NCBI GenBank assembly: GCA_030041215.1 | Contig: JASHOH010000180.1 | Location: 1 to 38,753, forward strand | DNA length: 38,753 bases | Direction: 5' to 3' | Source of the DNA: Candidatus Sulfotelmatobacter sp. | GTDB taxonomy: Bacteria > Acidobacteriota > Terriglobia > Terriglobales > Acidobacteriaceae | In this document: one piece after another, positions 7,937 to 20,212 of the stretch | How positions within the stretch are numbered: position 1 is the first letter of the stretch | Layout of the letters: each line of letters starts with the position of its first letter | Position numbers and translations under genes: made by a program | Notes under the pieces: generated by a model | The model's input: the letters and a program-made list of their open reading frames with translations, nothing else | Told to the model about the DNA's origin: nothing | Database searches by the model: none

Positions 7937-8779
7937 CTACGCAGGCCAGATGCTGAGCGCGGTCTTGCTCAAGATCTGCTGCTGAATTTCCGGTGGCAGT
8001 GGCAGCGCGCAAAAATCATCGAGATTCTTCTTTATGTCAGGCACTCCCGGCCCCGGCCAATCCGTGCCGAAAAGAGTCTTGTTCGCAATTTCATTCAGCC
8101 GCGGAAAGTATTCGAGCAAAGACTTCGGCGGAATGCCGCTGATGTCAAGGTAAACATTGGGATGGCGGCGGATCAGGAAGAATGCCGTCTCCATCCACAG
8201 CGGACGCCCGCCGTGCGCGAGCAGAATTCTTAACTTCGGGAAATCAATCGCGACATCGTCTACATATAAAGGATCGCCATACTTGTTCCGCGCCCCGGGA
8301 AAAATGGACGTTCCGGTATGAAACATCACCGGTATGCCATTCGCTTCGGCCGCACGGTAAATAATTTCCAGCTCTTTGACTCCCTTTAAATAATCGTTAG
8401 GAAACAAAAGCTGGTGCGGCGGATGGATCTTGATCATGCGGATTCCCAGCCGCAGAATCTGCTCCATATCGGCGAGCACATTCGTTGTATGCCGCGGATG
8501 CAAGCTGCCGCAGGAGATCAGCCGCTTCGGATTTTCTTTCACGTAATCCGCGACGAATTGATTTACTCCGTTCGTGAAGCCAATCACTTCAGGCGCGACG
8601 TAGTTGATGAGCACCGCACGCTCAATGCCGCACGCATCCAGATATTTCAGAAAAGCCTCGGGCGACTGGCAGAATTCATTGATTTGCTCGAAGTTCGGCC
8701 GCTTGTTTTTGATCAACTCCAGCGCATGCGGCTTGAACATCTGCATCGGCTGGATGTGAATGTGGCAGTCAGTGATCAA
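7937..8779 (-). CDS. amidohydrolase_2 family metal-dependent hydrolase
   Basis: This 280-aa TIM-barrel enzyme belongs to the family that includes ACMSD-type decarboxylases and 2-pyrone dicarboxylate (LigI-type) hydrolases. Metal ligands appear as DCHIHI (H6, H8), MFHTGTS (H154), LLAHGG (H189) and FGTDWPG (D240). KIHPP at 117-121 lies in the middle of the barrel. It has no signal peptide, so it is cytosolic. It is the last gene of the long minus-strand catabolic cluster, 64 bases after the DUF3291 gene. That context suggests it acts on a carboxylated or ring-opened aromatic intermediate, but the substrate cannot be read from sequence. Confidence 0.82.
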   Translation of the reverse strand: MITDCHIHIQPMQMFKPHALELIKNKRPNFEQINEFCQSPEAFLKYLDACGIERAVLINYVAPEVIGFTNGVNQFVADYVKENPKRLISCGSLHPRHTTNVLADMEQILRLGIRMIKIHPPHQLLFPNDYLKGVKELEIIYRAAEANGIPVMFHTGTSIFPGARNKYGDPLYVDDVAIDFPKLRILLAHGGRPLWMETAFFLIRRHPNVYLDISGIPPKSLLEYFPRLNEIANKTLFGTDWPGPGVPDIKKNLDDFCALPLPPEIQQQILSKTALSIWPA

Positions 8780-8843
8780 AGCGGAGACCAGTCGTTGTGA
8801 GGCAGATTGTATCAGTCATAGAATTTTCGCACGACGGAGCGCG

Positions 8844-9344
8844 CTAAGCCGGACAGGGCTCGAACGACACCCAATCAATGCTTCTTTGAAATTCTTCTTC
8901 AGCCTGGAAAACTGCTTTGAAAGTAAAGGCAAACTGCGTGGGCCCGTGCTTCTCTAAGTGCGCGAGCCGTTTCGTCGCCTCATCCACGCTTGGAATATGT
9001 CCGACCGGCACCCACCATAGCGCCATGTAAATGCGGGAAAATTTCTCGAACCATTCATGAGGTTGGCGCAGCAGTTCAGCATGCGCTGAACTATAGACGT
9101 ACATTTTGAGACTATCGATCGTTTCCCACACCGACATGTTGATCAAAATCGAGTCATCATCTTTGTAGGGGCGATAGGCGGTTGCGTTTCCGGCAGGTGT
9201 TTGCAGCCGCCACACGAAACCGGGAGTGCGCTCCGCTAGGGCGTTAATTTCATTAAGGCGACTCATGAATCCGTCCATGATGGGATGCTCAACCGGCGCT
9301 TTCACCTTCCCGATGTTAACTTGCGCGATGTGATAACGGCTCAT
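8844..9344 (-). CDS. DUF3291 family protein
   Basis: This 166-aa protein begins MSRYHIAQVNIGKVKAPV. The start at 9344 is chosen over an upstream TTG because an AAGGAG site sits 7 bases before it. SILINMSVWETIDSLKMYVY and ALWWVPVGHIPSVDEA are typical of DUF3291, a ferredoxin-like alpha/beta barrel related in fold to antibiotic-biosynthesis monooxygenase proteins. No catalytic residue is established for the family. It follows the molybdenum hydroxylase flavoprotein gene by 28 bases, so it is very likely part of the same transcript. Confidence 0.8.
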   Translation of the reverse strand: MSRYHIAQVNIGKVKAPVEHPIMDGFMSRLNEINALAERTPGFVWRLQTPAGNATAYRPYKDDDSILINMSVWETIDSLKMYVYSSAHAELLRQPHEWFEKFSRIYMALWWVPVGHIPSVDEATKRLAHLEKHGPTQFAFTFKAVFQAEEEFQRSIDWVSFEPCPA

Positions 9345-9372
9345 GCGGGCTCTCCTTATCAAGAATCAGTGG

Positions 9373-10356
9373 TCAGTTATGCGCAGCCGCCAGCACTGCG
9401 CGTTTGGTGAACACGCGAACCATCTCCCGCCTGTATTCGGGCGTCAGCCCTGATGTGGTCAGCGGCTTTGCTGTTCGCGCGGCAATATCCCCGATCGATT
9501 CAGCCAGCGCCTCATTCACGACTTTCCCCGTCAGTATCTGTCCCGCGCGCTCGACGAGTATCGGAGCGGGATTCACGGCCGTGATTGCCACTCGTGCATC
9601 GTCAACACGCATATTCGATCGTTTCATCGCGACTGCAACGCCGGCCAGGGGATAATCAATTGAACCGCGAACCCGCAGTTTGCGATAAACGCCGCGATAT
9701 CCCGCCGACTCGGCCGGCAAGAGAACACGGGTTACCAGTTCATTCGCTTTCAGCTTGCGATAGTCCTGCCCGTCATTTGTATAGAAGTCGCGCAGCGCAA
9801 CACGCCTCGTGCCAATTGCGCTGGCTATTTCGATTTCGGCATTCAAACAAAGAAGCGCGGCGGGCGTATCTCCCGAAAACGCGGCCCAACATTTCGTTCC
9901 ACCGGGTGCGACATGGCAAAGATTGCCGTCTTTCTTGATGCAGAAGCCGCATGCCTTGCGCCAAGCAAGCGACTGGTTGTACCACAAGCAGCGAGTGTCG
10001 AGGCAGATGTTTCCTCCGATTGTGCCCATGTTCCGAATCACCGGCGAGGCTACAGTGGCGGCAGCTTCGGTAAGAACTGGAAAGTGCTCGCGCAGATAAG
10101 TCGATTTCTCAATCGTGCTTAACGCCGTCAGCGCACCGATCTCAACGCCACCGTCGTTCAGACGACGCTCTCCGCGCAGTTGATCAACGCCACGCAAATC
10201 GAGCACGTACTCCGGCTCAAACAATTTCTGCCGCATCGAGGGAATCAAATCCGTTCCGCCCGCGAGCACGCGAATATTACCCGCGTATTGCGCCAGGTAT
10301 CCCATCGCGTCGCCAAGCGTTCGTGGGCGCAGGAGTTTGAACTCGGGAAGGCTCAA
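9373..10356 (-). CDS. hcrB: 4-hydroxybenzoyl-CoA reductase-type FAD/[4Fe-4S] subunit (HcrB-like)
   Basis: This 327-aa FAD-binding subunit belongs to a molybdenum hydroxylase. FAD contacts are LAGGTDLIP (residues 31-39) and TIGGNI (112-117). Between them and the C-terminal domain lies an insertion of about 40 residues with cysteines C123, C139, C147 and C156. Their spacing (16, 8, 9) equals that of the four cysteines described for the extra [4Fe-4S] cluster of Thauera aromatica HcrB (122, 138, 146, 155). This insertion is absent from ordinary xanthine dehydrogenase or CoxM subunits. In Hcr the cluster carries low-potential electrons from ferredoxin to the molybdenum site. The start is TTG at 10356, overlapping the TGA of the preceding gene, which suggests translational coupling. 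Confidence 0.88.
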   Translation of the reverse strand: MSLPEFKLLRPRTLGDAMGYLAQYAGNIRVLAGGTDLIPSMRQKLFEPEYVLDLRGVDQLRGERRLNDGGVEIGALTALSTIEKSTYLREHFPVLTEAAATVASPVIRNMGTIGGNICLDTRCLWYNQSLAWRKACGFCIKKDGNLCHVAPGGTKCWAAFSGDTPAALLCLNAEIEIASAIGTRRVALRDFYTNDGQDYRKLKANELVTRVLLPAESAGYRGVYRKLRVRGSIDYPLAGVAVAMKRSNMRVDDARVAITAVNPAPILVERAGQILTGKVVNEALAESIGDIAARTAKPLTTSGLTPEYRREMVRVFTKRAVLAAAHN

Positions 10357-12944
10357 TCAGCACCGCCTGCCGGCATTTCATGCCGCGCGGGATCCAGCGG
10401 ATGCCGCTCTGGCCCTTTGCCCTTGAACCACAGCGCGCCGCCGTGTTCGCGGAAGCGAGCAGGAGAAGTAAGATCGACTCCTTCGGCCAAATTCAGAGCT
10501 TTCTGCTTCTTCTTCGCCCGCAGCGCCGCCAGCACCCGCTCAGGCGTAAACGGAGACTCATGGAGTCGCACACCGACTGCGTCATGGATAGCGTTCGCGA
10601 TAGCCGGAATCGTCGCAGCCAGCGATCCTTCGCTGCATTCCTTGGCACCAAACGGGCCTTCGGGATCAACACTTTCCACAATAATTGGCTCAATCTCCGG
10701 CGACTCGACTGACGATGGACTGCGATATTCGAGCAGTCCAGCATTCATCAACATGCCGTCTTTCCAGACCATCTCTTCGGTAAGCGCCTGCCCCATGCCC
10801 ATCCAGACTGAACCGATAATCTGCCCTTCCACCGCAACCGGATTTAATGCCCGCCCGCAATCGTGCGCCGCCCAGACTTTGTGCACGGTGACTTCGCCCG
10901 TTTCTTCATCAACGCTGACTTCGGCCACCTGCGCCGAATACGAATACGCCGGCGAGGGCCCAACACCAGCGCCCTTGTGCTTGCCTCCTCGCGCTTCCGG
11001 CGGAGGCGCGTAAGAACCGGTGCCTGTCAGCGCGCCGTGAAAATCAATCGCCGCGACGACCGCTTCTTCAAACGTCATCCACTCCTTCGGGCCTTCCTCT
11101 TTCCGCTTCTGCTGGAGCGACCCGCGCAGGATCTGCCCTTCCACGCGTCCGCTGACCGAAGCGCCCGACTGTGTGATCTCGACTTCTTCTAATTGATCTC
11201 TTTTCGCAATTGGCAGAGCGCTTCCCTTCTTAAAGACCACATCCTCGCGAAAGACTAAATCTTCCGCAGCGCAATCCATCTTCTTCGCCGCAGCCGCGGC
11301 AATCATCTTTCTTACTTCTTCCGCCGCACGCAGCGTCGCATTCCCAGCCATAAACGTCACACGACTGGAATACGATCCAATGTCAATGGGTGTCAAATCT
11401 GTATCAGCCGCAATCACCCGCACGCGCTCAAGCGAGCAGCCAAGCGCCTCGGCCGCAATCTGCGCCGTCATCGTGTCCGATCCCTGACCAATCTCTGACG
11501 CTCCTGTATACACCACCACGCCGCCATCACGATCGATCTTAATGTTCACCGTCGAATGCGGCATGTCCGACCGGATGATCGAATTCGCCGCCCCGCTGAC
11601 ATAATGGCTGCACGCAACACCGAGCCCGCGTCCGCGAGGAAGCTTGCCTTTGCGCCGTTTCCAGCCCGAACGCTCGACGGTTCTCTCGATGCACTCGGGC
11701 AAACCGTAACTCTGCACGCGCAAGCTGTTGACAGTAATGCAAGGCGGCTTCAGCAGATTGCGCAGCCGAATCTCCGCCGGATCCATGCCAATCTTCTGGG
11801 CCAGCTCATCGAGTTGCGATTCGAAAGCAAATCGAACATTCACTGTCCCATGTCCACGCATCGCACCGCACGCCGGCTTGTTCGTGAGCACGCGGTATCC
11901 GTCGTATTGAATGTTGGGAATGTCGTAAAGCGCGCCCAGCAGCGCTCCCGAATAAAGGATGGTCACGACCCCGTACGAGCAATACGCGCCGCCATCTTGC
12001 ACCACGAGAGCCTTCACGGCCGTGATGCGGCCGTCATGCTTCACGCCGGTTTTCAGATCGACAATCGTCCGCGGACGCCCGCGATGCGCCCAGAACACCT
12101 CTTCGCGGGTATAAGTGATCTTGACCGGCGCCTTCGCCTTGCGCGCGGCGATGGCGGCGATAATTTCCAGCGGAATCACTTCGCTCTTTCCGCCGAAGCC
12201 TCCGCCCACCAGCGGCTTGATCACGCGAATCTGCTGCATCGGCATTTCGAGCACAAGCGAGAGTTTGTGCTGCAAGTAATATGGAACCTGTGTTGAGGAT
12301 TGCACAGTGAGCCGTCCGAGCTTGCCCGTGTGCGGGTCAAGTTCGAAAGAGGCCAGCGTGCAATGTGGCTCCATCGCGGCATGCGTCACTTCATTGGCGA
12401 TGAAACGCGCCTCGGCGATGTGATCGGCCTCAGCAAAACCTTTTTCGGGATCGCCGAACACGTGGTGGTAATCTTTTTCGATATTGTGCGGCTTGTGGTC
12501 GTGGATGAGATCGCTTTCCGCCTTCATCGACTCTTCGGGATCAAAGTAGGCAGGCAAGAGTTCGTATTCGACGTCAATTAGCTCCAGAGCTTTTTCTGCA
12601 ATCGCTTCTGACACGGCGACCACACAGGCAACGTTGTCTCCCACGTAACGGACTTTATCGAGCGCGAGCGCATGCTCATCGTGACCGACAGGAAGAATTC
12701 CAAAAGGATTGGGCGCGTCTTTACCGATTGCCACGGCAACGACTCCGTCAAGCTTCTCGGCCCGGCTGGTATCAATGCCCTTGATGCGTGCATGAGGATA
12801 CGGCGAATGCAGAATTTTGCCGATCAACATGCCGGGGACGCTGAGGTCGTCGGCGTACTTGCCGCCGCCCGTGGTCTTTCCCGCCGCGTCGACCATCGCG
12901 GTAGGCTTGCCGATAATGGAAAAGTCAGTCATTGCAGAGTTCAT
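10353..12944 (-). CDS. molybdenum hydroxylase large (Moco) subunit, HcrA/xanthine dehydrogenase type
   Basis: This large subunit binds molybdopterin cytosine dinucleotide and carries the substrate site. Motifs in order are TGGGKYADDL near the N-terminus, VGGGFGGKSE, CGAMRGHGTVN, GASEIGQGSDTM, CGRALNP, and GPFGAKECSEGSLAA. The last aligns with the loop holding the catalytic Glu of xanthine oxidase. It is about 863 aa from ATG 12944, longer than HcrA (about 770), with a Lys/Glu-rich segment and a PPPEARGG linker in the last third. An ATG at 12932 is also possible. Neither ATG has a clear ribosome binding site, and a GC-rich hairpin lies immediately upstream. Its partner subunit with the [4Fe-4S] insertion makes an aryl-CoA dehydroxylase the first guess, with another aromatic or purine hydroxylase as the alternative. 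Confidence 0.85.
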   Translation of the reverse strand: MNSAMTDFSIIGKPTAMVDAAGKTTGGGKYADDLSVPGMLIGKILHSPYPHARIKGIDTSRAEKLDGVVAVAIGKDAPNPFGILPVGHDEHALALDKVRYVGDNVACVVAVSEAIAEKALELIDVEYELLPAYFDPEESMKAESDLIHDHKPHNIEKDYHHVFGDPEKGFAEADHIAEARFIANEVTHAAMEPHCTLASFELDPHTGKLGRLTVQSSTQVPYYLQHKLSLVLEMPMQQIRVIKPLVGGGFGGKSEVIPLEIIAAIAARKAKAPVKITYTREEVFWAHRGRPRTIVDLKTGVKHDGRITAVKALVVQDGGAYCSYGVVTILYSGALLGALYDIPNIQYDGYRVLTNKPACGAMRGHGTVNVRFAFESQLDELAQKIGMDPAEIRLRNLLKPPCITVNSLRVQSYGLPECIERTVERSGWKRRKGKLPRGRGLGVACSHYVSGAANSIIRSDMPHSTVNIKIDRDGGVVVYTGASEIGQGSDTMTAQIAAEALGCSLERVRVIAADTDLTPIDIGSYSSRVTFMAGNATLRAAEEVRKMIAAAAAKKMDCAAEDLVFREDVVFKKGSALPIAKRDQLEEVEITQSGASVSGRVEGQILRGSLQQKRKEEGPKEWMTFEEAVVAAIDFHGALTGTGSYAPPPEARGGKHKGAGVGPSPAYSYSAQVAEVSVDEETGEVTVHKVWAAHDCGRALNPVAVEGQIIGSVWMGMGQALTEEMVWKDGMLMNAGLLEYRSPSSVESPEIEPIIVESVDPEGPFGAKECSEGSLAATIPAIANAIHDAVGVRLHESPFTPERVLAALRAKKKQKALNLAEGVDLTSPARFREHGGALWFKGKGPERHPLDPARHEMPAGGAD

Positions 12945-12948
12945 GTGG

Positions 12949-12970
12949 GGACGGCCGCCCTCGGCCGTCC
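12949..12970. repeat. GC-rich palindromic hairpin directly upstream of the Moco subunit gene
   Basis: GGACGGCCG (12949-12957) and CGGCCGTCC (12962-12970) form a perfect 9-bp stem with a 4-nt loop, ending five bases before the ATG at 12944. It resembles REP-type intergenic elements and could affect translation of the large subunit. Confidence 0.6.
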
Positions 12971-13001
12971 GGTCAAGCGAAGCTCGACAGGTCAATTCAC
13001 A

Positions 13002-13313
13002 TCAGAACCAATATCGATGCATCTCGTCCAGAAACTCCTTCGTCAGCGGAAAACCCGCGGCGGAGCCCAACACGGAGTCGATTCCGCATCGCGGACAGCG
13101 AGCGGTCCGTTCGTGATCAATCCAGTCCACGATCTCAGCGGGTGCAAAGGAAGCTCGACAGTAGAAACAGGCGCAGATCTCGCTAACCAGAATCTCGTCT
13201 CGATTTTGAGAGCAGCGCACATGCGCCGCTCGAACATTTGCAGGCATTCGCGATTTTAATCTCTCAAGCTTCGCCGCTATCTCCGCCGTTTCCTGCTCAG
13301 GAGTTTTGCTCAC
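13002..13313 (-). CDS. small zinc-ribbon protein within the hydroxylase operon
   Basis: This 103-aa cytosolic protein has a helical N-terminus (about 1-25) followed by a zinc ribbon with CxxC at C49/C52 (CACFYC) and CxxC at C73/C76 (CPRCG). An extra Cys is at 47. The start is GTG at 13313 with a GGAGGG site five bases ahead. I recognise the general family of small CxxC/CPxCG proteins but not a function. It lies between the 2Fe-2S and Moco subunit genes, with 30- and 57-base spacers. This invites a role in regulation, assembly or electron transfer for the enzyme, which is inference only. Confidence 0.75.
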   Translation of the reverse strand: MSKTPEQETAEIAAKLERLKSRMPANVRAAHVRCSQNRDEILVSEICACFYCRASFAPAEIVDWIDHERTARCPRCGIDSVLGSAAGFPLTKEFLDEMHRYWF

Positions 13314-13343
13314 GACGACCCTCCGGCTTTGCAGGCCATCTTA

Positions 13344-13835
13344 TTAGGATTTCGCAGCCATCCCCGCACGTTCCGCCGCCACCGCCGCTCTAATCGCCTC
13401 ATACATCTGGTTATATCCCGTACAGCGGCACAAATTGCTGCTCAAAGCGTTGCGCACATCCTCTTTTGACGGATCAGGATTTTCCCTCAGCAGCGACTTC
13501 ACGGTCATGATGAACCCCGGAGTGCAATATCCACACTGTGCACCTCCCCAGTCGCCGTATGCTTTCTGGATCACAGCCAGGCTGCCATGCTCGCTCACGC
13601 CCTCGATCGTTGTGATTTCCTGGCCTTCGCAACTCGCCGCCAACAAAGCGCACGAAAGCATAGCGATGCCATTGATCAGCACGGTGCATGCTCCGCAAGA
13701 CGACTCATCGCAGCCGCGCTTCGAGCCGGTAAGCCCGAGGTCGCGCCGCAATACGTCGAGCAATAACGCATTCGGCTCAATCGCCAGCTCGTGAGTGCGG
13801 CCGTTGACTTTCAGTTCGATGAGTTCTTTTTTCAT
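13344..13835 (-). CDS. molybdenum hydroxylase [2Fe-2S] subunit (HcrC/CoxS-like)
   Basis: This 163-aa subunit carries two [2Fe-2S] clusters. The plant-ferredoxin type cluster uses C42, C47, C50 and C62 (in CDESSCGAC and SCALL). The helical-domain cluster uses C101, C104, C136 and C138 (in QCGYCTPG and CRCTGY). These pass electrons between the molybdenum centre and the FAD subunit. Length and motif spacing are those of HcrC, CoxS and XdhC-type subunits. It is the first of the three subunit genes transcribed (order 2Fe-2S, Zn-ribbon, Moco, FAD). About 200 bases with repeats separate it from the preceding crotonase gene. Confidence 0.93.
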   Translation of the reverse strand: MKKELIELKVNGRTHELAIEPNALLLDVLRRDLGLTGSKRGCDESSCGACTVLINGIAMLSCALLAASCEGQEITTIEGVSEHGSLAVIQKAYGDWGGAQCGYCTPGFIMTVKSLLRENPDPSKEDVRNALSSNLCRCTGYNQMYEAIRAAVAAERAGMAAKS

Positions 13836-13836
13836 A

Positions 13837-13868
13837 ACTGAGCTATGAGCAATGAGCTGTGAGCAAGG
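13837..13868. repeat. tandem TGAGCTRTGAGCAA repeat (2 copies)
   Basis: Two head-to-tail 14-base units (TGAGCTATGAGCAA and TGAGCTGTGAGCAA) lie immediately upstream of the 2Fe-2S subunit start. They are non-coding, low-complexity intergenic DNA. Confidence 0.55.
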
Positions 13869-13913
13869 AGTGACTTGGTCGCTCAGCGCTCAGAACCCAT
13901 AAAATCCGTTTTG

Positions 13914-13975
13914 AAGGGGCTCGGCTTCAGCCGAGCCGTTCAGGGTGGCCAAAAGTGCGGGCTCCAGCCCCTGAG
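13914..13975. repeat. palindromic intergenic element with GGCTCGGCT/AGCCGAGCC hairpin
   Basis: GGCTCGGCT (13918-13926) and AGCCGAGCC (13929-13937) form a 9-bp inverted repeat with a 2-base centre. Outer GGGGCT (13916-13921) pairs with AGCCCC (13966-13971) as an alternative fold. It lies between the two halves of the catabolic cluster and resembles elements at 29640 and 37370. Confidence 0.55.
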
Positions 13976-14035
13976 GGTTTGCGGTTATTACTCTCTTTGT
14001 TCATTGTGGGACGGCTTTTCACTGCTCATGACCCG

Positions 14036-14821
14036 CTACTTCCCTTTCCACTTCGGCTCGCGCTTCTCCATGAACGCGCGAATGCCCTCCTGCGCATCTT
14101 CTGTCTTCATCAACTCTTCCAGGTAAATCTTTTCGGCGCGCGCCAGACCTTTGTCGAAGTGCATTGCGTCCCAAGCGTAAAAGGCTTTTTTTGTCACACC
14201 CAGTGTGGCCGGGCTCAGCCGCGCCACTTCTTCCAAAATTCCTTCGACCGCCTCAGGCAAATCATCATCGGGGACCACCTGATTCACCAGACCAATCCGA
14301 GCCGCCTCGTTGCCATTGATCGTTCGCCCAGTCAGGATCAATTCCGCCGCCCGTGTCTGACCGACCAAAGCCGCCAGCGCCGTGCACGCCACCGGCGGAT
14401 AGCAACCCAGCTTGATCTCAGGAAATCCCCACTGTGCCGATGCGGTCGCGTAAACGATGTCGCAAACCATAGCCAGCTCTGCCCCGCCGCCCAGACAATG
14501 CCCGCGCACCGCAGCGATTGTCACTTTCTTACTTGCGAGCAGCGCACGAACAACGGCATGAAACTTTCGCAACATCTCCCCGATCTTATCGGGAGTATGC
14601 GCCGCCACATCCACGCCCGCCGAGAAACCTTTGCCATCACCGCTCAACACGATTGTAGAAATATCGGAGCGGCTTTCGATCTCCGCAAGCGCCTGCACCA
14701 ACTCCTCCATCATCGGAATATCGATCACATTCAGAGGAGGATTGCGGAGCGCGATGCGCGCGACCGAACCGCTCACGTCGAGGGTGAGGCGGCTAAGCTT
14801 GGATTCCACAACAACCGGCAT
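14036..14821 (-). CDS. enoyl-CoA hydratase family, cyclohexa-1,5-dienecarbonyl-CoA hydratase-like
   Basis: This 261-aa crotonase-fold protein has an N-terminal RNPPLNVIDIPMMEELVQAL and the oxyanion-hole motifs GKGFSAGVDVAAHTPDK (about 63-79) and GHCLGGGAELA (about 107-117). PEIKLGCYPPVA follows. The combination PPLNVxDxxMM with SAGVDVxxHTxDKxxEML is what I associate with dienoyl-CoA hydratases (Dch/BamR) of benzoyl-CoA degradation rather than with fatty-acid enoyl-CoA hydratases. This is from memory, not from a search. In that pathway Dch hydrates cyclohexa-1,5-diene-1-carbonyl-CoA. No benzoyl-CoA reductase gene is present, so the substrate here may be a different ring-derived CoA ester. It lies 42 bases after the epoxidase gene. 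Confidence 0.78.
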   Translation of the reverse strand: MPVVVESKLSRLTLDVSGSVARIALRNPPLNVIDIPMMEELVQALAEIESRSDISTIVLSGDGKGFSAGVDVAAHTPDKIGEMLRKFHAVVRALLASKKVTIAAVRGHCLGGGAELAMVCDIVYATASAQWGFPEIKLGCYPPVACTALAALVGQTRAAELILTGRTINGNEAARIGLVNQVVPDDDLPEAVEGILEEVARLSPATLGVTKKAFYAWDAMHFDKGLARAEKIYLEELMKTEDAQEGIRAFMEKREPKWKGK

Positions 14822-14825
14822 TTTG

Positions 14826-14851
14826 TCTTCTCTGTGTCTCTGTGACTCTGT
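14826..14851. repeat. low-complexity TCTCTGTG-type tandem repeat
   Basis: Imperfect repeats of CTCTGTG (tctctgtgtctctgtgactc) fill the short spacer between the epoxidase and hydratase genes. It is non-coding and of a type common in intergenic DNA of this window. Confidence 0.4.
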
Positions 14852-14863
14852 GGTGAAAGCAAT

Positions 14864-16039
14864 CTACAAATTAATCGCCGACTTTCTCACTTCCCCAATC
14901 GTAGCCAGCGGATCACGTGCGCCAGCCTTCTCCGCGATCCATTTCTTTTCGGTCTCGATAATGTCGAGCAGCAATTTCTTGTCTGCAGCGGTCGGCATGT
15001 ATTCCTTCAGATGCTCTTCATAAGCCTTATCGTCGAGGGGCTCGCCCGTCTTGGCATGGAACTTCTGATTTGCCCATCGCCCGATGAAGCGATTGAACTT
15101 AATGTCCGGCGCATACAACTTCGGCTCACCCGGCTTCAAAGCACCGTTGAATCGCTCGATCAACCCGGCCACTTCCTGGCGATAGAGATGCCGGTTGTAA
15201 TCGTTGAGATCATCCAGATCGGCGGCCTTGTCATTTTTCGGCTCGTCGTAGCGTCCCTTGATTCCCCACACATACGCCCAGTGTGCAGACGAAGAATGAT
15301 CCGTTCCGAACAGATCGTAAGAACTTGAAATCCACTTGTTGAGATATTTCTGGATTAACCATCCAGGCACGACGCCCGCCTCCACGATGCGCCGCAGGCC
15401 ATCATTGCCCGTGCCCATGTGAAACGCCTCTTCGCGCAGCATGTATGACATCGACCGGCCCAGCGGAGCAAACGCCGAATACTTCAGCATCTGCAACTGA
15501 AACTTTCCGTCGCGATCGACAAAATCGGTGTAGGTGAAGAAATCCATCCAGTTGTCGACATCCACATTGAACGCGCCCAGCAGTCGCTTGTTCTCAAAGG
15601 CGCGGCGCTCGAGCATTTTCTGCGCCTCGACCTTGCCCGAGTACCCGAAATGATCGACGAGCAAGGCACACATCTGCCATCCATGCCGCATTTCTTCAAT
15701 CATCACGCGCGTGATGGCCCGCCGGTCCCAATCGGTTGGAGCATTCTCCAGCAGATTCCGCTGCTGCTCAACACTGGCGAACTCGGTATCGCCCTGATAG
15801 ACGATCATGTTCATCAGCGCGTCGCGCATCTGCTGCGTGGGCATCTGACGCAGGTTCTCCCACTTTCGCTTGCCCCTATAATGGCCAAACTCGATCTCTT
15901 CCGTATCGATCGCGCCATACAGCGTGTCGAAATGAAAGGCTTCGATGTCCTCCGTGTTGACGCCAATCTCCTTGCGCCAATCATTGAACAGACCGATCCA
16001 GTCACTGAAAGTTCCAATTTTTGCTACTTTGCCCGGCAT
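14864..16039 (-). CDS. BoxB/PaaA-family diiron aryl-CoA epoxidase, short form
   Basis: This 391-aa ferritin-like diiron protein has the pattern expected for PaaA/BoxB oxygenases. E86 lies in QGDTEFASVEQQ, an ExxH is at E116/H119 (IEEMRHGWQM), and a second ExxH is at E204/H207 (REEAFHMGTG). VVPGWLIQKYLNKWISSSYDLFG and SSSAHWAYVWGIKGR follow. BoxB epoxidises benzoyl-CoA to the 2,3-epoxide and PaaA forms ring-1,2-epoxyphenylacetyl-CoA. BoxB is about 470 aa and PaaA about 310-330, so this falls between. The neighbouring ALDH, crotonases and Hcr-like enzyme favour a benzoyl-CoA-type substrate. No PaaBCE or BoxA partner is nearby. GAGAGGAC precedes the ATG. Confidence 0.82.
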   Translation of the reverse strand: MPGKVAKIGTFSDWIGLFNDWRKEIGVNTEDIEAFHFDTLYGAIDTEEIEFGHYRGKRKWENLRQMPTQQMRDALMNMIVYQGDTEFASVEQQRNLLENAPTDWDRRAITRVMIEEMRHGWQMCALLVDHFGYSGKVEAQKMLERRAFENKRLLGAFNVDVDNWMDFFTYTDFVDRDGKFQLQMLKYSAFAPLGRSMSYMLREEAFHMGTGNDGLRRIVEAGVVPGWLIQKYLNKWISSSYDLFGTDHSSSAHWAYVWGIKGRYDEPKNDKAADLDDLNDYNRHLYRQEVAGLIERFNGALKPGEPKLYAPDIKFNRFIGRWANQKFHAKTGEPLDDKAYEEHLKEYMPTAADKKLLLDIIETEKKWIAEKAGARDPLATIGEVRKSAINL

Positions 16040-16055
16040 ATAAGTCCTCTCTACT

Positions 16056-16152
16056 TATCATCCTGAAGCGCCTTCTTGGCGCTGAAGGACCTGGGCGCGC
16101 CGCGCGCCACCTCGAAGCCTGCCCTGAGAGAGCGAAGCGACCGAAGGGCGCG
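16056..16152 (+). repeat. GC-rich palindromic intergenic repeat (copy B, TCATCCTGAAGCGCC)
   Basis: The spacer between the aldehyde dehydrogenase and epoxidase genes begins TCATCCTGAAGCGCC and contains GCGCC-N5-GGCGC at about 16069-16083. It continues through GGGCGCGCCGCGCGCC and CCTGCCCTGAG...CGAAGGG. The last segment is shared with the element at 26866-26948. Confidence 0.55.
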
Positions 16153-16166
16153 TTTGGCGCGCCTCC

Positions 16167-17630
16167 TTATCCCATATTCAGCCAAACCGTCTTCATCTCC
16201 GTGTAATGCTCAATCGCATGCGCACCAAGCTCGCGCCCAAAACCCGAACTCTTGTAGCCGCCGAATGGCAGCGACGCGTCCATCAATCCATAGGTGTTGA
16301 TCCAAACCGTGCCTGCTTTTAATCTTCGCGAAACGCTGTGCGCTTTCTTCACGTCGCGCGTCCATACAGCGGACGCTAACCCGTAAGGATTGTTGTTCGC
16401 CTGCTCGATCACCTCATCCACATCATCGAAGGTCAGCACGGACAGAACCGGGCCAAAAATTTCCTCGCGCGCAATCGTCATCTCATTCTTTACGTCGCCG
16501 AAAATCGTCGGCTCAATGAAAAATCCTTTGTCGCCATCAACCGAAACCCGATGGCCTCCCGCCACCAGCTTGGCCCCATCCCTCTTGCCTGCCTCAATGT
16601 AGCCAAGCACGGTATTCATCTGCTCCTGGCTGACAATCGCGCCCATCCGCGTCTTCGGGTCGAGCGGATCGGCTGGCCGCATCTTGCTCGCCCGCGTGAC
16701 CAGCTTCTCGGTGAACTCATCTTTCACTTTACTTTCGAGAAATAGCCGCGAACCTGCGTTGCACACTTCACCCTTGCCATAAAAAATTCCGGTGATTGCG
16801 CCTTTGACAGCGTTGTCGATATCGGAGTCCGCGAAAACGATATTCGGAGATTTGCCCCCAAGCTCCAGCGTAATGCGCTTCAGCGTGTCGGAGGCGTTGC
16901 GCATGATCTCCTGTCCGACCGCGGTCGATCCCGTAAAAGCGATCTTGTCGATACCGGGATGCTTGACCATGGCGCGTCCGATCGCGCCGGGCCCTGTAAC
17001 GATGTTGATGACGCCTGCCGGAACGCCCGCCTCCATCGCCAGCTTCCCAAACCGCAAGGTCGTAAGCGAAGTCTGGCTGGCCGGTTTCCATACCACCGCA
17101 TTCCCGCACGCCAGCGCTGGGCCGAGTTTCCAGGAAGCCAGCAGCAGCGGGAAATTCCACGGCACAATCATCCCAACCACGCCCACAGGCTCGCGCAGCG
17201 TATAGGTAAAGGCAGACTCAGTTGTATTGATGGTTTCGCCGTGAATCTTGGTCGCCAGCCCGGCGTAGTAACGCAAAACATCGATGACCATCGGCATATC
17301 GACGTAGCGCGATTCGAAGATCGGCTTGCCATTGTCTAGTGTTTCGAGTTCGGCAAACTCGTCGATATTTTTCTCGAGCAGATCGGCAAGCTTCCAGATC
17401 AGCCGCCCGCGCTCGCTGGCCGACATCTTTCGCCACGGCCCGTTACGGTCTTCCAGCGCCCGTCGTGCAGCTTCCACAGCACGGTCGACATCCGCCGATG
17501 AACCCTCCGCAATCTGAGTCAGAACCTCACCAGTTGCAGGATTGATGGTGTCGAAGCTTTTCGCCGCATCAATCCACTTGCCATCAATCAGCAACTGCCC
17601 GCGTTCGATCTTTGTTTTTGCTGCAAGCAT
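16167..17630 (-). CDS. NAD(P)-dependent aldehyde dehydrogenase
   Basis: This 487-aa ALDH-superfamily enzyme oxidises an aldehyde to the acid. Its features are the PWNFPL segment, KPASQTSLTTL, FTGSTAVGQ, the general-base Glu in LELGGKSPN, the catalytic Cys in GKGEVCNAGSR, EEIFGPVLSV and the C-terminal PFGGYKSSGFGRELG. It belongs to the classical ALDH1/2/betaine-aldehyde type, not to the BoxD (3,4-dehydroadipyl-CoA semialdehyde) or PaaZ type that I would expect for a canonical ring-opening route. Within the cluster it may oxidise a semialdehyde ring-cleavage product (inference). The enzyme is cytosolic. Confidence 0.92.
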   Translation of the reverse strand: MLAAKTKIERGQLLIDGKWIDAAKSFDTINPATGEVLTQIAEGSSADVDRAVEAARRALEDRNGPWRKMSASERGRLIWKLADLLEKNIDEFAELETLDNGKPIFESRYVDMPMVIDVLRYYAGLATKIHGETINTTESAFTYTLREPVGVVGMIVPWNFPLLLASWKLGPALACGNAVVWKPASQTSLTTLRFGKLAMEAGVPAGVINIVTGPGAIGRAMVKHPGIDKIAFTGSTAVGQEIMRNASDTLKRITLELGGKSPNIVFADSDIDNAVKGAITGIFYGKGEVCNAGSRLFLESKVKDEFTEKLVTRASKMRPADPLDPKTRMGAIVSQEQMNTVLGYIEAGKRDGAKLVAGGHRVSVDGDKGFFIEPTIFGDVKNEMTIAREEIFGPVLSVLTFDDVDEVIEQANNNPYGLASAVWTRDVKKAHSVSRRLKAGTVWINTYGLMDASLPFGGYKSSGFGRELGAHAIEHYTEMKTVWLNMG

Positions 17631-17661
17631 TCAGTCTTCTTCAATAAGCAGCAGAGCTTCG

Positions 17662-17698
17662 CTTGGCGGACGGGCAAGGGAGGCGCCCGTCCCTACAG
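17662..17698. repeat. REP-like hairpin GGACGGGC / GCCCGTCC
   Basis: GGACGGGC (17668-17675) and GCCCGTCC (17685-17692) form an 8-bp perfect inverted repeat with a 9-base loop in the 71-base spacer between crotonase and aldehyde dehydrogenase genes. It is similar in style to the hairpin at 12949. Confidence 0.6.
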
Positions 17699-17701
17699 GA
17701 G

Positions 17702-18523
17702 CTATCTTGCTTTAAAGCCCGCCGGCCGCTTCTCCACGTACGCAGCAAGGCCTTCTTTCGCATCTTCGCTCTGGAAGAGCAACTGCTGGTTTTCGCGCTC
17801 GACCGCCAGTCCAGACTCCAGCGGAATCTCCCATCCCGTCTGCACGGCGCGTTTGATCCGTCCCACAGCTTTTGCGGCCTTATTCGGCGGGCAGAACTGC
17901 CGCGCGTACTCCATGATGTTCTCCATGAATCCATCGCGCTCAAAAATATCGTTAATGATCCCAAGCTCCAGCGCCTCTTCAAACGAGAACGTGTTGCCCG
18001 TCACCATCAACTCGATTGCCTTACTCTTCCCCACGAGCCTGGAAAGCCGCTGCGTGCCGCCAGTTCCCGGCAACACACCGAGATTCACTTCTGGCAGACC
18101 GATCTTCCCTGCATCCTTGCGCGCGATGCGGATGTCCGCAGCCATCGCAATCTCCAAACCACCACCCACGCAGTGGCCATTGATCGCCGCAATCACCAGC
18201 TTCGGCGTGTGTTCCAGCCGCAGCAGCATCTCGTTGGCGTGCAGGCAGAAGTAATACTTGAACGTGGGATCGACGCTCGACAGCATCTTGATGTTGGCGC
18301 CCGCAGAGAAAAACTTATCGCCTGCCCCGGTGATAACGATAACGTAAACGTCGTTATCCATGCGTGCGCGCAGGATCGCGTCATCCAGTTGCCGGTTCAT
18401 CTCATAGGTGTAAGTATTGGCCGGCGGATCGCACATCTCGATCACCGCAACGCCGCCTTGGGTGCGGTAGTTAACAAGCTGTTTGGTGGTTTCTCCGGTC
18501 GCCGGCTGCATTGTCGTCGCCAT
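17702..18523 (-). CDS. enoyl-CoA hydratase/isomerase (crotonase) family protein
   Basis: This 273-aa crotonase-fold enzyme has its start at 18523 (MATTMQPATG), chosen because AAGGAGA lies about six bases upstream. The oxyanion-hole motifs GDKFFSAGANIKML and NGHCVGGGLEIAMAADIRIA, and the catalytic region LPEVNLGVLPGTGGTQRL, are intact. The Glu pair typical of hydratases (GLE and PE) is present, so hydration of an enoyl-CoA is plausible. It is the first enzyme gene after the TetR regulator. It is not the 550-aa BoxC ring-opening dihydrolase. Beta-oxidation of a ring-opened CoA ester is the likely role by context. Confidence 0.88.
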   Translation of the reverse strand: MATTMQPATGETTKQLVNYRTQGGVAVIEMCDPPANTYTYEMNRQLDDAILRARMDNDVYVIVITGAGDKFFSAGANIKMLSSVDPTFKYYFCLHANEMLLRLEHTPKLVIAAINGHCVGGGLEIAMAADIRIARKDAGKIGLPEVNLGVLPGTGGTQRLSRLVGKSKAIELMVTGNTFSFEEALELGIINDIFERDGFMENIMEYARQFCPPNKAAKAVGRIKRAVQTGWEIPLESGLAVERENQQLLFQSEDAKEGLAAYVEKRPAGFKAR

Positions 18524-18579
18524 ACCTATCTCCTTGTGTCGTTGTCTCAATCTCTAATCTGCCGCTGAATTCTCTGTCG

Positions 18580-18632
18580 TGATGTCATTCCGAACCGGTC
18601 CGACGGACCGGTAAGGAAACTGCTTTTCGCCA
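18580..18632 (+). repeat. dispersed intergenic repeat, TCATTCCGAACCGG type (copy C)
   Basis: ATGTCATTCCGAACCGG begins the element, followed by the palindrome ACCGGTCCGACGGACCGGT (about 18594-18612) and the end AACTGCTTTTCGCC. The start and end match copy D at 26866-26948, while the middle is shorter. It lies between tetR and the crotonase gene. Confidence 0.65.
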
Positions 18633-18649
18633 GTCGTCACCACGAGCCT

Positions 18650-19297
18650 CTACCGTCGCCCGCGATTCATCACCCCGCGTAGAAAAATATCTCCCATCTC
18701 CTGCGCAATCTGGCCGGCATCCGCATCCACCCGCGGATTGTGCCACGTATAAATCCAATTCATCATTCCGAATAAACTCAAGACCGCAATACGCGTGGAA
18801 AACTCCAATCCTTGTTCGCGCTTCAAGTCATCCAGCAATCCCACGCAGATGCGGTAATACTGACGCTTGATGGCCGCTATTTCCGATCCAAATCCGTTCT
18901 TCAGTACGTCGGCCTCATGTGACAGCACCTTCATGCTCGCTGGATTGGCCAGAAAATATTCCAGGTGATTGAGAATAAAAATGCGGATCTGTTGTTCGGG
19001 ATCGGTCACACCAGCCAGCCGTTCCCTCAGCCGCTGCACAATGGTGGTGAACGTATGCTTCTGGATGAGGAATAACAGCCGCTCTTTGGACTGGAAGTAG
19101 TAGTAAAGTCCCGCCAGCGACATGCCGCTGGCGCGCGACAGATCGCGCATGGATGCGCCTTCGTAGCCTTTTTTGCAGAAGACTTCAGTGGCGTGGTCGA
19201 GAATTTCCGCCAGCCGCCGGTCAAAGCGAGTGGCTGAAGGCGCGGTCGCGCGGTGGCCGCGAGATGAAGCACGAGTTGTTGCCGCTGGACTTCCCAC
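18650..19297 (-). CDS. TetR/AcrR family transcriptional regulator
   Basis: This 215-aa repressor-type regulator has an N-terminal helix-turn-helix. ILDHATEVFCKKGYEG is followed by SMRDLSRASGMSLAGLYYYF and SKERLL (residues about 30-75). The C-terminal ligand-binding domain is helical and resembles those of regulators of fatty-acid or aryl-CoA catabolism. It starts with GTG at 19297 preceded by GGGGAA. A sigma70 promoter and a long palindrome lie directly upstream, consistent with autoregulation. It heads the minus-strand catabolic cluster, so a CoA-thioester pathway intermediate is the probable inducer (inference). Confidence 0.92.
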   Translation of the reverse strand: MGSPAATTRASSRGHRATAPSATRFDRRLAEILDHATEVFCKKGYEGASMRDLSRASGMSLAGLYYYFQSKERLLFLIQKHTFTTIVQRLRERLAGVTDPEQQIRIFILNHLEYFLANPASMKVLSHEADVLKNGFGSEIAAIKRQYYRICVGLLDDLKREQGLEFSTRIAVLSLFGMMNWIYTWHNPRVDADAGQIAQEMGDIFLRGVMNRGRR

Positions 19298-19313
19298 AGT
19301 TCCCCAGAAAACG

Positions 19314-19343
19314 TACTGATTCGAACGTTCGTTAGAATCAGTA
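19314..19343. promoter_or_regulatory. 30-bp palindrome, probable TetR operator
   Basis: The left arm TACTGATTCGAACG and right arm CGTTAGAATCAGTA pair at 13 of 14 positions around a central TT (19328-19329). The only mismatch is 19323/19334. It overlaps the -10 box of the tetR promoter by four bases and ends 16 bases before the GTG start. This is the geometry of an autorepression site. Confidence 0.8.
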
Positions 19344-19368
19344 TAAGGAAAACGAACGTCGATAGCAA
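19340..19368 (-). promoter_or_regulatory. sigma70-type promoter of the tetR gene
   Basis: On the minus strand TTGCTA (19368-19363) and TATACT (19345-19340) are separated by exactly 17 bases. The -10 hexamer overlaps the palindromic operator. It begins just after the PEGA gene stop codon. Confidence 0.7.
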
Positions 19369-19382
19369 GGCTGAGTTCGCTT

Positions 19383-20212
19383 TTACTGTGGACTCGTGAC
19401 AGCGGGCTGGATAGGCGGAGTCTGAGTCGGTTCCCTTTCGATGAGCAGAATGTTTTTCACCTGATTTCTATCGTAGGTGACATCTTTTCCGCCAACCCGC
19501 ACAACCAATTCGGTCGCAGACATCGAGAGCAGGTCTCCGCCCAACACCGTACCGTCGCGCAGTTCGATTGTGTCGTGTGTGGAACCACCAAGCTCGAACG
19601 TCACGCTGCCCCCCGAAACATCGTCTGGGCCGATTTCTACGGGAAACTTGCCGTTACTAAACCCCTCTTTGACAAATTCAAGCACGTGCTTGCCCAAAGT
19701 GAACTTGACAATCTTGGGAGTCTCTCCTGCATCGGCGCCGTCGATCCTGAGCGTAGCCCCCTGTGGCACCGAGTTGACCGTCATAGAAATCGCCTTCGGA
19801 GGGGCAGCTGGGCCAGGCTCCGCCGGCAGATCCTCGGCACCAGTGAGAGCGATACGGGCGAACCTGCCATCGAAACCGTCGTTTGAAACTTGACGGTCTC
19901 CCCAGCACGCAGGTTGCTGACCATTACCGTGGCTTCACCGATTCGCACTTTGTTTTTGTCAAACAAGTAAAGTGAGAAGTTCGCGTTCGAAATGACTTTC
20001 GTCCAAAGGTTCTCTGCAGTGGTCTCAGTCATGTACGTACCCTGATTACCGATCCCTCCTATTTCTTTAAACTTCGCAAAGGTGAAGCGCAGGATAGGAG
20101 AACCAGATTCCGGCCACGTAATGGTCTGCGCTCCCTGATCCTTGCCGCTGGTGGTCGAGACAAGGAAGGGTAACAGTGCGATAAAACCTATAAGGATCGC
20201 ACGCCGCAACAT
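19383..20212 (-). pseudogene. PEGA-domain secreted protein, split by a frameshift
   Basis: Two frames overlap by four bases (ATGA, 19781-19784). The upstream frame (20212-19781, 143 aa) has a signal peptide (RRAILIGFIALLPFLVSTTS) and a beta-rich domain, then turns to unnatural Arg-rich sequence at its end. The downstream frame (19784-19383, 133 aa) is a PEGA domain (SVPQGATLRIDGADAGETPK) with a DTIELRDGTVLGGDLLSMSA segment. Before its ATG this frame reads a sensible linker (AEDLPAEPGPAAPPKAIS). One missing base near 19837 would join the two into one protein of about 275 aa. True two-gene coupling is the less likely alternative. Homologues are exported and of unknown function. Confidence 0.75.

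What the first reader, a model, noticed from the sequence alone, without database searches (positions are those of the whole stretch)
7937..19345. Hybrid aryl-CoA catabolic cluster joining an Hcr-type reductase to a BoxB/PaaA-type epoxidase
One minus-strand block encodes TetR, crotonase, ALDH, a short diiron epoxidase, a Dch-like hydratase, 2Fe-2S / Zn-ribbon / Moco / FAD-4Fe4S hydroxylase genes, DUF3291 and amidohydrolase_2. Hcr-type dehydroxylation is best known from anaerobic 4-hydroxybenzoate degradation, while BoxB/PaaA needs oxygen. The canonical partners (BoxA, BoxC, CoA ligase, benzoyl-CoA reductase) are missing. The presence of these families is seen in the sequence. That they form one pathway is inferred from strand, spacing and shared chemistry. 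It could be an undescribed aerobic or microaerobic route for hydroxylated aromatic acids.
Basis: partly seen in the sequence, partly recalled or inferred. Interest (0 to 1): 0.82.

Follow-up and report, generated by a model that had tools for sequence, protein, structure and literature searches.

The report
Oxygen-dependent benzoyl-CoA operon with Hcr feeder
Soil Acidobacteriota carry a conserved gene cluster that appears to strip the hydroxyl group from 4-hydroxybenzoyl-CoA and then attack the resulting benzoyl-CoA with oxygen, using a divergent epoxidase that lacks its usual ring-opening partner and a switch sequence shared with the oxygen-free benzoate pathway.

Summary
The genes are real and at the stated places: eleven minus-strand genes, -4 to 200 bp apart. 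The order recurs across Terriglobales. The BoxB-like epoxidase has the crotonase ech as neighbour (at most an ALDH between) in 65 of 65 testable loci. DUF3291 (4 of 100 loci) and the Zn-ribbon ORF (none) are passengers; ALDH and hcrCAB are optional modules.

The epoxidase keeps all six BoxB iron ligands and Gln116/Thr119/Ser123/Phe193 in 99 of 99 rows, but has two signature pocket changes, and BoxC was found in 0 of 16 genomes with it (canonical BoxB: 9 of 9).

'Missing' partners exist elsewhere in the genome: a benzoate-CoA ligase and a class I benzoyl-CoA reductase operon. The palindrome before tetR (CGAACG-NN-CGTTCG) also stands at the start of that operon here and in 13 of 14 genomes whose operon was located independently. 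In five of 19 genomes whose locus lacks hcr, hcrCAB lies elsewhere, in three 2.6-2.7 kb downstream of the reductase operon.

Best reading: an oxygen-flexible benzoyl-CoA regulon, with Hcr as feeder and a BoxC-less Box variant as oxygen exit. Hcr feeding Box has published precedent. New variant of a known kind; no activity has been shown.

The parts
19320..19337 (-). operator palindrome TTCTAACGAACGTTCGAA, 22 bp before the tetR start
   Evidence: 1 mismatch to TTCGAACGNNCGTTCGAA; in the window alone a match at <=3 mismatches arises in 29 of 100 shuffles; the 10-mer CGAACGTTCG lies upstream of tetR in 66 of 71 loci
19340..19345 (-). TATACT -10-like box next to the operator
   Evidence: read; TATACT in many relatives (listing)
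18650..19297 (-). TetR regulator (TetR_N + TetR_C_24)
   Evidence: present in 56 of 61 loci with enough flank
17702..18550 (-). ech: single-domain crotonase, proposed BoxC replacement
   Evidence: near boxB in 65 of 65 loci; best match of this genome to the BoxC model (86 bits, cut-off 712)
16167..17630 (-). aldehyde dehydrogenase, proposed BoxD-like step; optional
   Evidence: 33 of 71 loci
14864..16039 (-). short BoxB-like diiron epoxidase, 391 aa
   Evidence: tree
14036..14821 (-). second crotonase, Dch-like but below cut-off
   Evidence: 56 of 63 loci
13344..13835 (-). HcrC: 2x[2Fe-2S] subunit
10353..12995 (-). HcrA: molybdopterin subunit
   Evidence: over TIGR03194 cut-off; one search aligned to 1rm6_A
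9373..10356 (-). HcrB: FAD/[4Fe-4S] subunit
   Evidence: aligned to 1rm6_B with four loop cysteines kept
7937..8779 (-). amidohydrolase_2 of unknown substrate, found with and without hcr
   Evidence: 42 of 52 loci
13002..13313 (-). small ORF with two CxxC pairs (Zn-ribbon-like), passenger
   Evidence: sequence; no Pfam hit; absent from relatives
8844..9362 (-). DUF3291 protein, passenger
   Evidence: in 4 of 100 loci

Best explanation
The block is the oxygen-using half of a TetR-controlled benzoyl-CoA regulon. Aryl acids are activated elsewhere (benzoate-CoA ligase on C18; in some relatives perhaps by a GctAB-type CoA-transferase inside the cluster). HcrCAB reductively removes the para-hydroxyl of 4-hydroxybenzoyl-CoA, giving benzoyl-CoA. 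With oxygen present, the short BoxB epoxidises benzoyl-CoA. The invariant neighbour ech, alone or with the second crotonase, takes the place of BoxC and opens the epoxide/oxepin; the ALDH, where present, oxidises the resulting semialdehyde as BoxD does. Without oxygen, genomes that have it can use the Bcr/Dch/Had/Oah operon behind the same palindrome. Shown by sequence: gene content, synteny, conserved iron ligands and pocket residues, no match to the BoxC and BoxA models over cut-off, shared palindrome, hcr lying in either operon. Inferred: substrates, reaction order, ech as ring opener, TetR as the binder of the palindrome, benzoyl-CoA as inducer. Unknown: electron donors of BoxB and Hcr here, and the role of the amidohydrolase.
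For: Pocket: six Fe ligands plus Gln116, Thr119, Ser123, Phe193 (residues named in PMC5489048, passages read) are invariant in 99 of 99 short-BoxB rows, window included, 97 of them distinct; PaaA aligns with H, S, G at 116/119/123. Pairing: ech near boxB in 65 of 65 loci; hcr in 35 of 52. BoxC over cut-off in 0 of 16 short-BoxB genomes but 9 of 9 canonical ones, where it is adjacent. Family f1 in the 297-genome sample: Hcr over cut-off in 7 of 7 BoxB+ and 0 of 24 BoxB- genomes (not corrected for kinship). Regulon: about 0.05 sites at <=1 mismatch expected in this genome under independent bases, 2 found, one before tetR and one just before the bcr operon. Of 14 genomes whose operon was located by the Had or Oah model, 9 have a core-perfect palindrome at its start, 4 one with a single core mismatch, 1 (G312) none within four mismatches. 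hcrCAB lies 2.6-2.7 kb downstream of the bcr operon on the same strand in 3 genomes (L141-L143), and the HcrA of these and of L140 nest within box-operon HcrA (99*). Of 20 genomes with hcr in the box operon, 15 have no Had match; G084 and G210 (100 and 99% complete) have Hcr without Oah or Had, so BoxB is the only exit seen there.
Against: No activity, transcript or metabolite data; almost all named sources are MAGs. BoxB is below its TIGR cut-off, and two pocket positions differ in nearly all or all 99 rows (Phe206 to Tyr in 97, Thr210 to Val/Ile in 99), so the substrate may not be plain benzoyl-CoA. HcrB and HcrC are below cut-off. ALDH is missing from over half the loci. No reductase for BoxB was recognised in the Terriglobales cluster. 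14 of 19 genomes whose locus lacks hcr have no Hcr over cut-off, so the core cannot depend on Hcr. All sites at <=2 mismatches are no more frequent than in the reversed-pattern control, so only close sites at operon starts carry weight, and G312 has no such site before had. The AlphaFold model of BoxB was poor (mean pLDDT 54.7) and is not used.
Confidence: 0.6

Rival explanations
1. The short BoxB acts on a substituted or different aryl-CoA, for example hydroxybenzoyl-CoA, and Hcr is only a neighbour serving the anaerobic route.
For: Clade-wide Tyr at 206 (97 of 99) and Val/Ile at 210 (99 of 99) next to the substrate; hcr is optional and can sit downstream of the bcr operon.
Against: 15 of 20 genomes with hcr in the box operon have no Had match; the Tyr/Val pocket is the same in loci with and without hcr, so it does not track the para-hydroxyl; the Gln116/Thr119/Ser123/Phe193 set is kept.
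Confidence: 0.2
2. The Moco enzyme is a hydroxylase of another aryl- or heteroaryl-CoA (as in furoyl-CoA or nicotinate oxidation) rather than a dehydroxylating Hcr.
For: HcrB and HcrC fall below their Hcr cut-offs; related Moco enzymes hydroxylate (recalled).
Against: HcrA is over its cut-off and its best PDB match is 1rm6 by a wide margin (822 vs 271 bits); HcrB has the extra 4Fe-4S loop with all four cysteines, a mark of 4-hydroxybenzoyl-CoA reductase (recalled); hcr lies behind the bcr operon in relatives.
Confidence: 0.1
3. The core (TetR, ech, BoxB-like, amidohydrolase) is a general epoxide/oxepin detoxification or lipid-type acyl-CoA unit and not a catabolic pathway.
For: No thiolase, hydroxyacyl-CoA dehydrogenase, transporter or ligase among the eleven genes; ech has its strongest PDB match to a chain named only 'Enoyl-CoA hydratase' (2ppy); TetR_C_24 domain.
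Against: BoxB benzoyl pocket largely conserved; palindrome shared with the bcr operon; hcr co-location.
Confidence: 0.1

Closest known systems
Aerobic hybrid benzoyl-CoA (box) pathway, BoxABCD, Azoarcus/Aromatoleum evansii
   Same: diiron epoxidase with the same ligands and most pocket residues; crotonase and ALDH partners; CoA esters
   Different: short BoxB (366-392 aa where complete), no BoxC or BoxA over cut-off, TetR instead of BoxR, pocket Tyr206 and Val/Ile210
4-Hydroxybenzoyl-CoA reductase HcrABC (Thauera aromatica, 1RM6)
   Same: three subunits, HcrA over cut-off, 4Fe-4S loop in HcrB
   Different: encoded inside an oxygenase operon; HcrB/HcrC below curated cut-offs
Aromatoleum aromaticum EbN1 4-hydroxyphenylpropanoate route (PMC9765128, passages)
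   Same: 4-hydroxybenzoyl-CoA to benzoyl-CoA ('presumptive reductive dehydroxylation') in oxic and anoxic growth, then box
   Different: box pathway named there is the standard one; here one joint operon, another phylum, no BoxC
Single or cross-acting regulators of box and bzd (BoxR/BzdR; PMC6449761, passages)
   Same: one regulatory logic for aerobic and anaerobic benzoyl-CoA routes
   Different: XRE/shikimate-kinase-like regulator and TGCA repeats there; TetR and CGAACG-NN-CGTTCG palindrome here; bcr-type operon rather than bzd
Class I benzoyl-CoA reductase pathway had-oah-dch-bcrCBAD
   Same: present elsewhere in this genome with the same palindrome
   Different: not in the window; Bcr subunits below their curated cut-offs

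Membership tests
BoxB (benzoyl-CoA 2,3-epoxidase) | six diiron ligands (E120, E150, H153, D211, E240, H243) | tested here: met
   99 of 99 short-BoxB rows
BoxB (benzoyl-CoA 2,3-epoxidase) | benzoyl-positioning residues Q116, T119, S123, F193, F206, T210 | tested here: inconclusive
   first four invariant; F206 is Tyr in 97 and T210 is Val/Ile in 99 of 99
BoxB (benzoyl-CoA 2,3-epoxidase) | NCBIfam TIGR03225 curated cut-off | tested here: not met
   220.9 vs 499.1 bits
BoxB (benzoyl-CoA 2,3-epoxidase) | falls inside the canonical BoxB clade | tested here: not met
   13 canonical acidobacterial rows are a separate 100/100 group; 18 Terriglobales short rows a 100/100 group; monophyly of all short forms unresolved
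Box pathway | BoxC (double-crotonase dihydrolase) present | tested here: not met
   0 of 16 short-BoxB genomes over cut-off; own genome best 86 vs 712 bits
Box pathway | BoxA reductase present | tested here: not met
   0 of 25 genomes over cut-off, canonical-BoxB Acidobacteriota included
4-hydroxybenzoyl-CoA reductase | HcrA over curated cut-off | tested here: met
   1029.3 vs 994.6 bits
4-hydroxybenzoyl-CoA reductase | extra [4Fe-4S] loop with four cysteines in the FAD subunit | tested here: met
   alignment to 1rm6_B
4-hydroxybenzoyl-CoA reductase | HcrB and HcrC over curated cut-offs | tested here: not met
   308 vs 405 and 186 vs 258 bits
4-hydroxybenzoyl-CoA reductase | reductive dehydroxylation of 4-hydroxybenzoyl-CoA | not testable with these tools
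   needs an assay
PaaA (phenylacetyl-CoA epoxidase) | PaaA-like pocket and PaaBCE partners | tested here: not met
   PaaA aligns with H/S/G at the Q116/T119/S123 positions; no PaaB/C/E among the cluster genes
Dch (cyclohexadienoyl-CoA hydratase) | TIGR03189 cut-off, for the window crotonase 14036-14821 | tested here: not met
   182 vs 292.5 bits; the C18 paralogue beside oah/had scores 255, also below

The most novel reading that the evidence does not exclude
Terriglobales and other Acidobacteriota use a second, BoxC-less and BoxA-less form of the oxygen-dependent benzoyl-CoA pathway: a short BoxB with a Tyr/Val pocket hands its epoxide to a single-domain crotonase, and the low-potential Hcr enzyme works in the same operon under oxic or micro-oxic conditions, in many species with no anaerobic pathway at all, under one TetR palindrome that also switches the reductive pathway where it exists.
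Probability: 0.45. Interest if true: 0.75.

Novelty: new variant of a known kind. Interest (0 to 1): 0.62.

Why it matters
If right, uncultured soil and peat Acidobacteriota have an overlooked route for lignin-type aromatic acids that model-based annotation would miss, because its key enzyme is below the BoxB cut-off and BoxC is absent. It also gives a testable case of how one regulon switches between oxygen-dependent and reductive attack on benzoyl-CoA, and whether an Hcr-type enzyme can serve an oxic pathway.

Tried and rejected
Rejected: (1) the whole ten-gene block as one fixed pathway: hcr and ALDH are optional, DUF3291 and Zn-ribbon are passengers. (2) CoA-transferase pair of relatives (c14/c16) as an IpdAB-type ring-opening hydrolase: the Glu of glutaconate CoA-transferase that I recall as catalytic aligns with a Glu in c14, so a true CoA-transferase is more likely. 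(3) PaaA-type epoxidase. (4) Absence of benzoyl-CoA reductase: false at genome level. (5) BoxA absence as a special feature: canonical-BoxB Acidobacteriota lack a match over cut-off too.

Plasmid searches with BoxB (the same search with more rows) gave 28 records at 36% identity or less, annotated BoxB or PaaA where they were annotated. Paper searches listed no paper on this cluster; only open-licence PMC papers are searched.

I therefore looked at operons located by the Had or Oah model alone: 13 of 14 have a site, 9 core-perfect and 4 with one core mismatch; G312 has none. G265, found through the palindrome, is not in that count.

Limits: the genome-contig scan kept the best 80 of 275 relatives, all Acidobacteriota, so distribution outside the phylum is untested. 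Rows dropped: one search counts only loci with enough flank; one search uses 71 loci (window included) with tetR and ech hits; searches used 16 of the 18 genomes with a short BoxB. Two genomes are in the locus sets twice (L035 = L068, L036 = L112). Operator-like sites near ech/boxB were seen in 4 of 13 distant loci (L047, L048, L049, L052) and not in the other 9. The <=2-mismatch hits include five inside ORFs (G310 C94, G210 C88 and C107, G121 C11, G257 C19) that I take as chance; I did not inspect every hit. Rhodanese and CoA-transferase counts rest on my own ORF caller and may be low.
Full report
What is there. The window is contig C65 of an acidobacterial genome assembly; its nearest named relatives are Candidatus Sulfotelmatobacter and other Terriglobales/Acidobacteriota MAGs. 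Eleven minus-strand genes run from tetR (19297) to an amidohydrolase (7937), with gaps of -4 to 200 bp. HcrA is over its cut-off; HcrB and HcrC are not, but HcrB aligns to Thauera HcrB with all four 4Fe-4S loop cysteines. The epoxidase is BoxB-like and below the BoxB cut-off.

Synteny. I compared 100 loci: 80 from the genome-contig scan and 20 regions from whole genomes, one of them a canonical-BoxB comparison (L053); two genomes occur twice (L035 = L068, L036 = L112). In Terriglobales the order is tetR-ech-(ALDH)-boxB-(CoA-transferase B)-crotonase-(CoA-transferase A)-rhodanese-(hcrC-hcrA-hcrB)-amidohydrolase. Among the 80 scan loci, with those cut short by contig ends dropped, ech is present in 65 of 65, tetR 56 of 61, ALDH 33 of 71, the second crotonase 56 of 63, rhodanese 48 of 63, each CoA-transferase gene 18 of 63, hcrC, hcrA and hcrB 35 of 52 and the amidohydrolase 42 of 52. 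DUF3291 is in 4 of 100 loci and the Zn-ribbon ORF in none. In the 47 loci with both flanks, a CoA-transferase gene occurs in 13 of 31 with hcr and 0 of 16 without; outside that set, L040 (G257) has one without hcr beside it, its hcr lying about 100 kb away. The B subunit aligns a Glu with the one that I recall as catalytic in glutaconate CoA-transferase, so the pair may activate the hydroxyaryl acid; that is inference.

The epoxidase. Short BoxB-like proteins (50% identity or more to the window's) occur in 18 of 297 sampled Acidobacteriota genomes, in 11 families. Against the BoxB active site described in PMC5489048 (passages read), all six Fe ligands and Gln116, Thr119, Ser123 and Phe193 are invariant in 99 of 99 short rows (97 distinct, window included), while Phe206 is Tyr in 97 and Thr210 is Val or Ile in 99. 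PaaA aligns with different residues at 116, 119 and 123. Canonical acidobacterial BoxB form a separate clade with full support, as do the 18 Terriglobales short rows; whether all short forms are one clade is unresolved. BoxC is over cut-off in 0 of 16 short-BoxB genomes and in 9 of 9 canonical-BoxB genomes, there next to boxB. BoxA is over cut-off in 0 of 25. PMC4498308 (passages read) says that BoxC has two crotonase domains, co-purifies with BoxB and is needed to overcome its product inhibition; a crotonase always near the short BoxB is therefore a natural stand-in. Distances of ech and BoxB correlate at r 0.92 over 79 loci, against 0.73 for HcrA (44 loci) and 0.69 for the second crotonase (75 loci); shared ancestry contributes to all three. 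In some other acidobacterial families the pair sits with a NuoE-like 2Fe-2S protein and a NuoF-like protein (L047, L048, L052; family scans on L047 only), a plausible NADH reductase in place of BoxA.

The rest of the genome. The genome encodes a benzoate-CoA ligase over cut-off at C18:256793-258316. About 53 kb away on the same contig is an operon with BcrC, BcrB, two BcrA/D-type ATPases, Had (456 vs 339 bits), Oah (554 vs 464 bits) and a Dch homologue; the Bcr subunits and Dch are below their cut-offs.

The operator. Upstream of tetR lies TTCGAACG-NN-CGTTCGAA next to a TATACT box; the window copy at 19320-19337 has one mismatch, and the 10-mer CGAACGTTCG is found upstream of tetR in 66 of 71 loci. 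In the window alone such a match is not remarkable (29 of 100 shuffles give one at up to 3 mismatches); conservation and placement are. About 0.05 sites with at most one mismatch are expected in this genome under independent bases; two were found, here and just before the bcr operon. To avoid choosing operons by their sites, I took the 14 Terriglobales genomes whose operon was located by the Oah or Had model. Nine have a core-perfect palindrome at the start of the operon (G000, G073, G121, G257, G302, G307, G310, G317, G321), four one with a single core mismatch (G315, G327, G328, G329), and one, G312, none within four mismatches. In several the site overlaps the first aligned codons, so the true start must lie downstream of it or the site is inside the gene; for G302 only the first gene's start is on the contig. 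A fifteenth genome, G265, has a bcr operon behind an exact site but was found through it. In G257 the relocated hcr module carries its own core-perfect copy (L145:11193). At two mismatches the sites are no commoner than in the reversed-pattern control, so only close sites at operon starts count. That this TetR binds the palindrome is inference.

Hcr lies in either route. Of 19 genomes whose box-type locus lacks hcr, 14 have no Hcr over cut-off and 5 have it elsewhere. In three of those five, hcrCAB lies 2.6-2.7 kb downstream of the bcr operon on the same strand (L141-L143); in a fourth (L140) no bcr gene is on that contig; in the fifth (L144) it lies in a separate module with the CoA-transferase pair and the amidohydrolase. 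The HcrA proteins of L140-L143 nest inside box-operon HcrA with 99 support in a quick tree. Had was sought in 42 genomes and found in 10: the five with displaced Hcr, none of the 14 without Hcr, 5 of 20 with hcr in the box operon, and none of G084, G210, G265. In 15 of 20, then, Hcr sits with BoxB and no Had is found; MAG gaps may explain some.

Reading. Hcr makes benzoyl-CoA; short BoxB plus crotonases is the oxygen exit; Bcr is the anoxic exit where present. Hcr-type dehydroxylation feeding box is already proposed for A. aromaticum EbN1, whose network places the presumptive dehydroxylation in both oxic and anoxic growth (PMC9765128, passages read). Joint control of box and bzd genes is known for BoxR/BzdR (PMC6449761, passages read). 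A genomic survey of the benzoyl-CoA pathway, PMC10803450, has no occurrence of 'acidobacteri' in its main text. What is not described in anything I found is the BoxC-less short-BoxB form, the joint operon with Hcr and the TetR palindrome shared with bcr; searches listed no such paper, in an open-licence library only.

Verdict. It is a new variant of the oxygen-dependent benzoyl-CoA pathway with a known type of feeder enzyme. Function remains unproven.

Noticed in passing
L171 2341-10057 (own genome C18): Divergent class I benzoyl-CoA reductase operon with Had, Oah and Dch homologues in an acidobacterial genome, beside genes that look by eye like a cytochrome bc complex.
   Followed up: partly
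L194-L204: A third BoxB-like clade (419-445 aa in 9 of 11 rows, 28-34% identity to the window protein), fully supported in the tree; five of its eleven genomes also carry Oah (G029, G042, G230, G246, G254). Function unknown.
   Followed up: no
L173 3477-14723 (G265 C2): Ferredoxin and KorA/KorB-like genes directly before the palindrome and a bcr operon, with what looks like a Rieske-type oxygenase after it; a possible source of reduced ferredoxin for Bcr and Hcr. Names are by eye, no family scan.
   Followed up: no
L047 10320-12922, L048, L052: NuoE-like and NuoF-like genes near short BoxB and ech; L047 and L052 also have a further crotonase, in L047 with 'oxepin-CoA hydrolase, alternative type' as best model (below cut-off).
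   Followed up: partly
L179 and L183 (G121 C2, G073 C11): The same palindrome (1-2 mismatches) upstream of what looks by eye like an acyl-CoA dehydrogenase, a possible further regulon member.
   Followed up: no
window 19383-20212: Small PEGA-domain ORF and an adjoining ORF upstream of tetR; in several relatives they are one protein, sometimes in two copies.
   Followed up: no
L038, L054, L132: A 109-aa protein is inserted between hcrC and hcrA in these loci.
   Followed up: no
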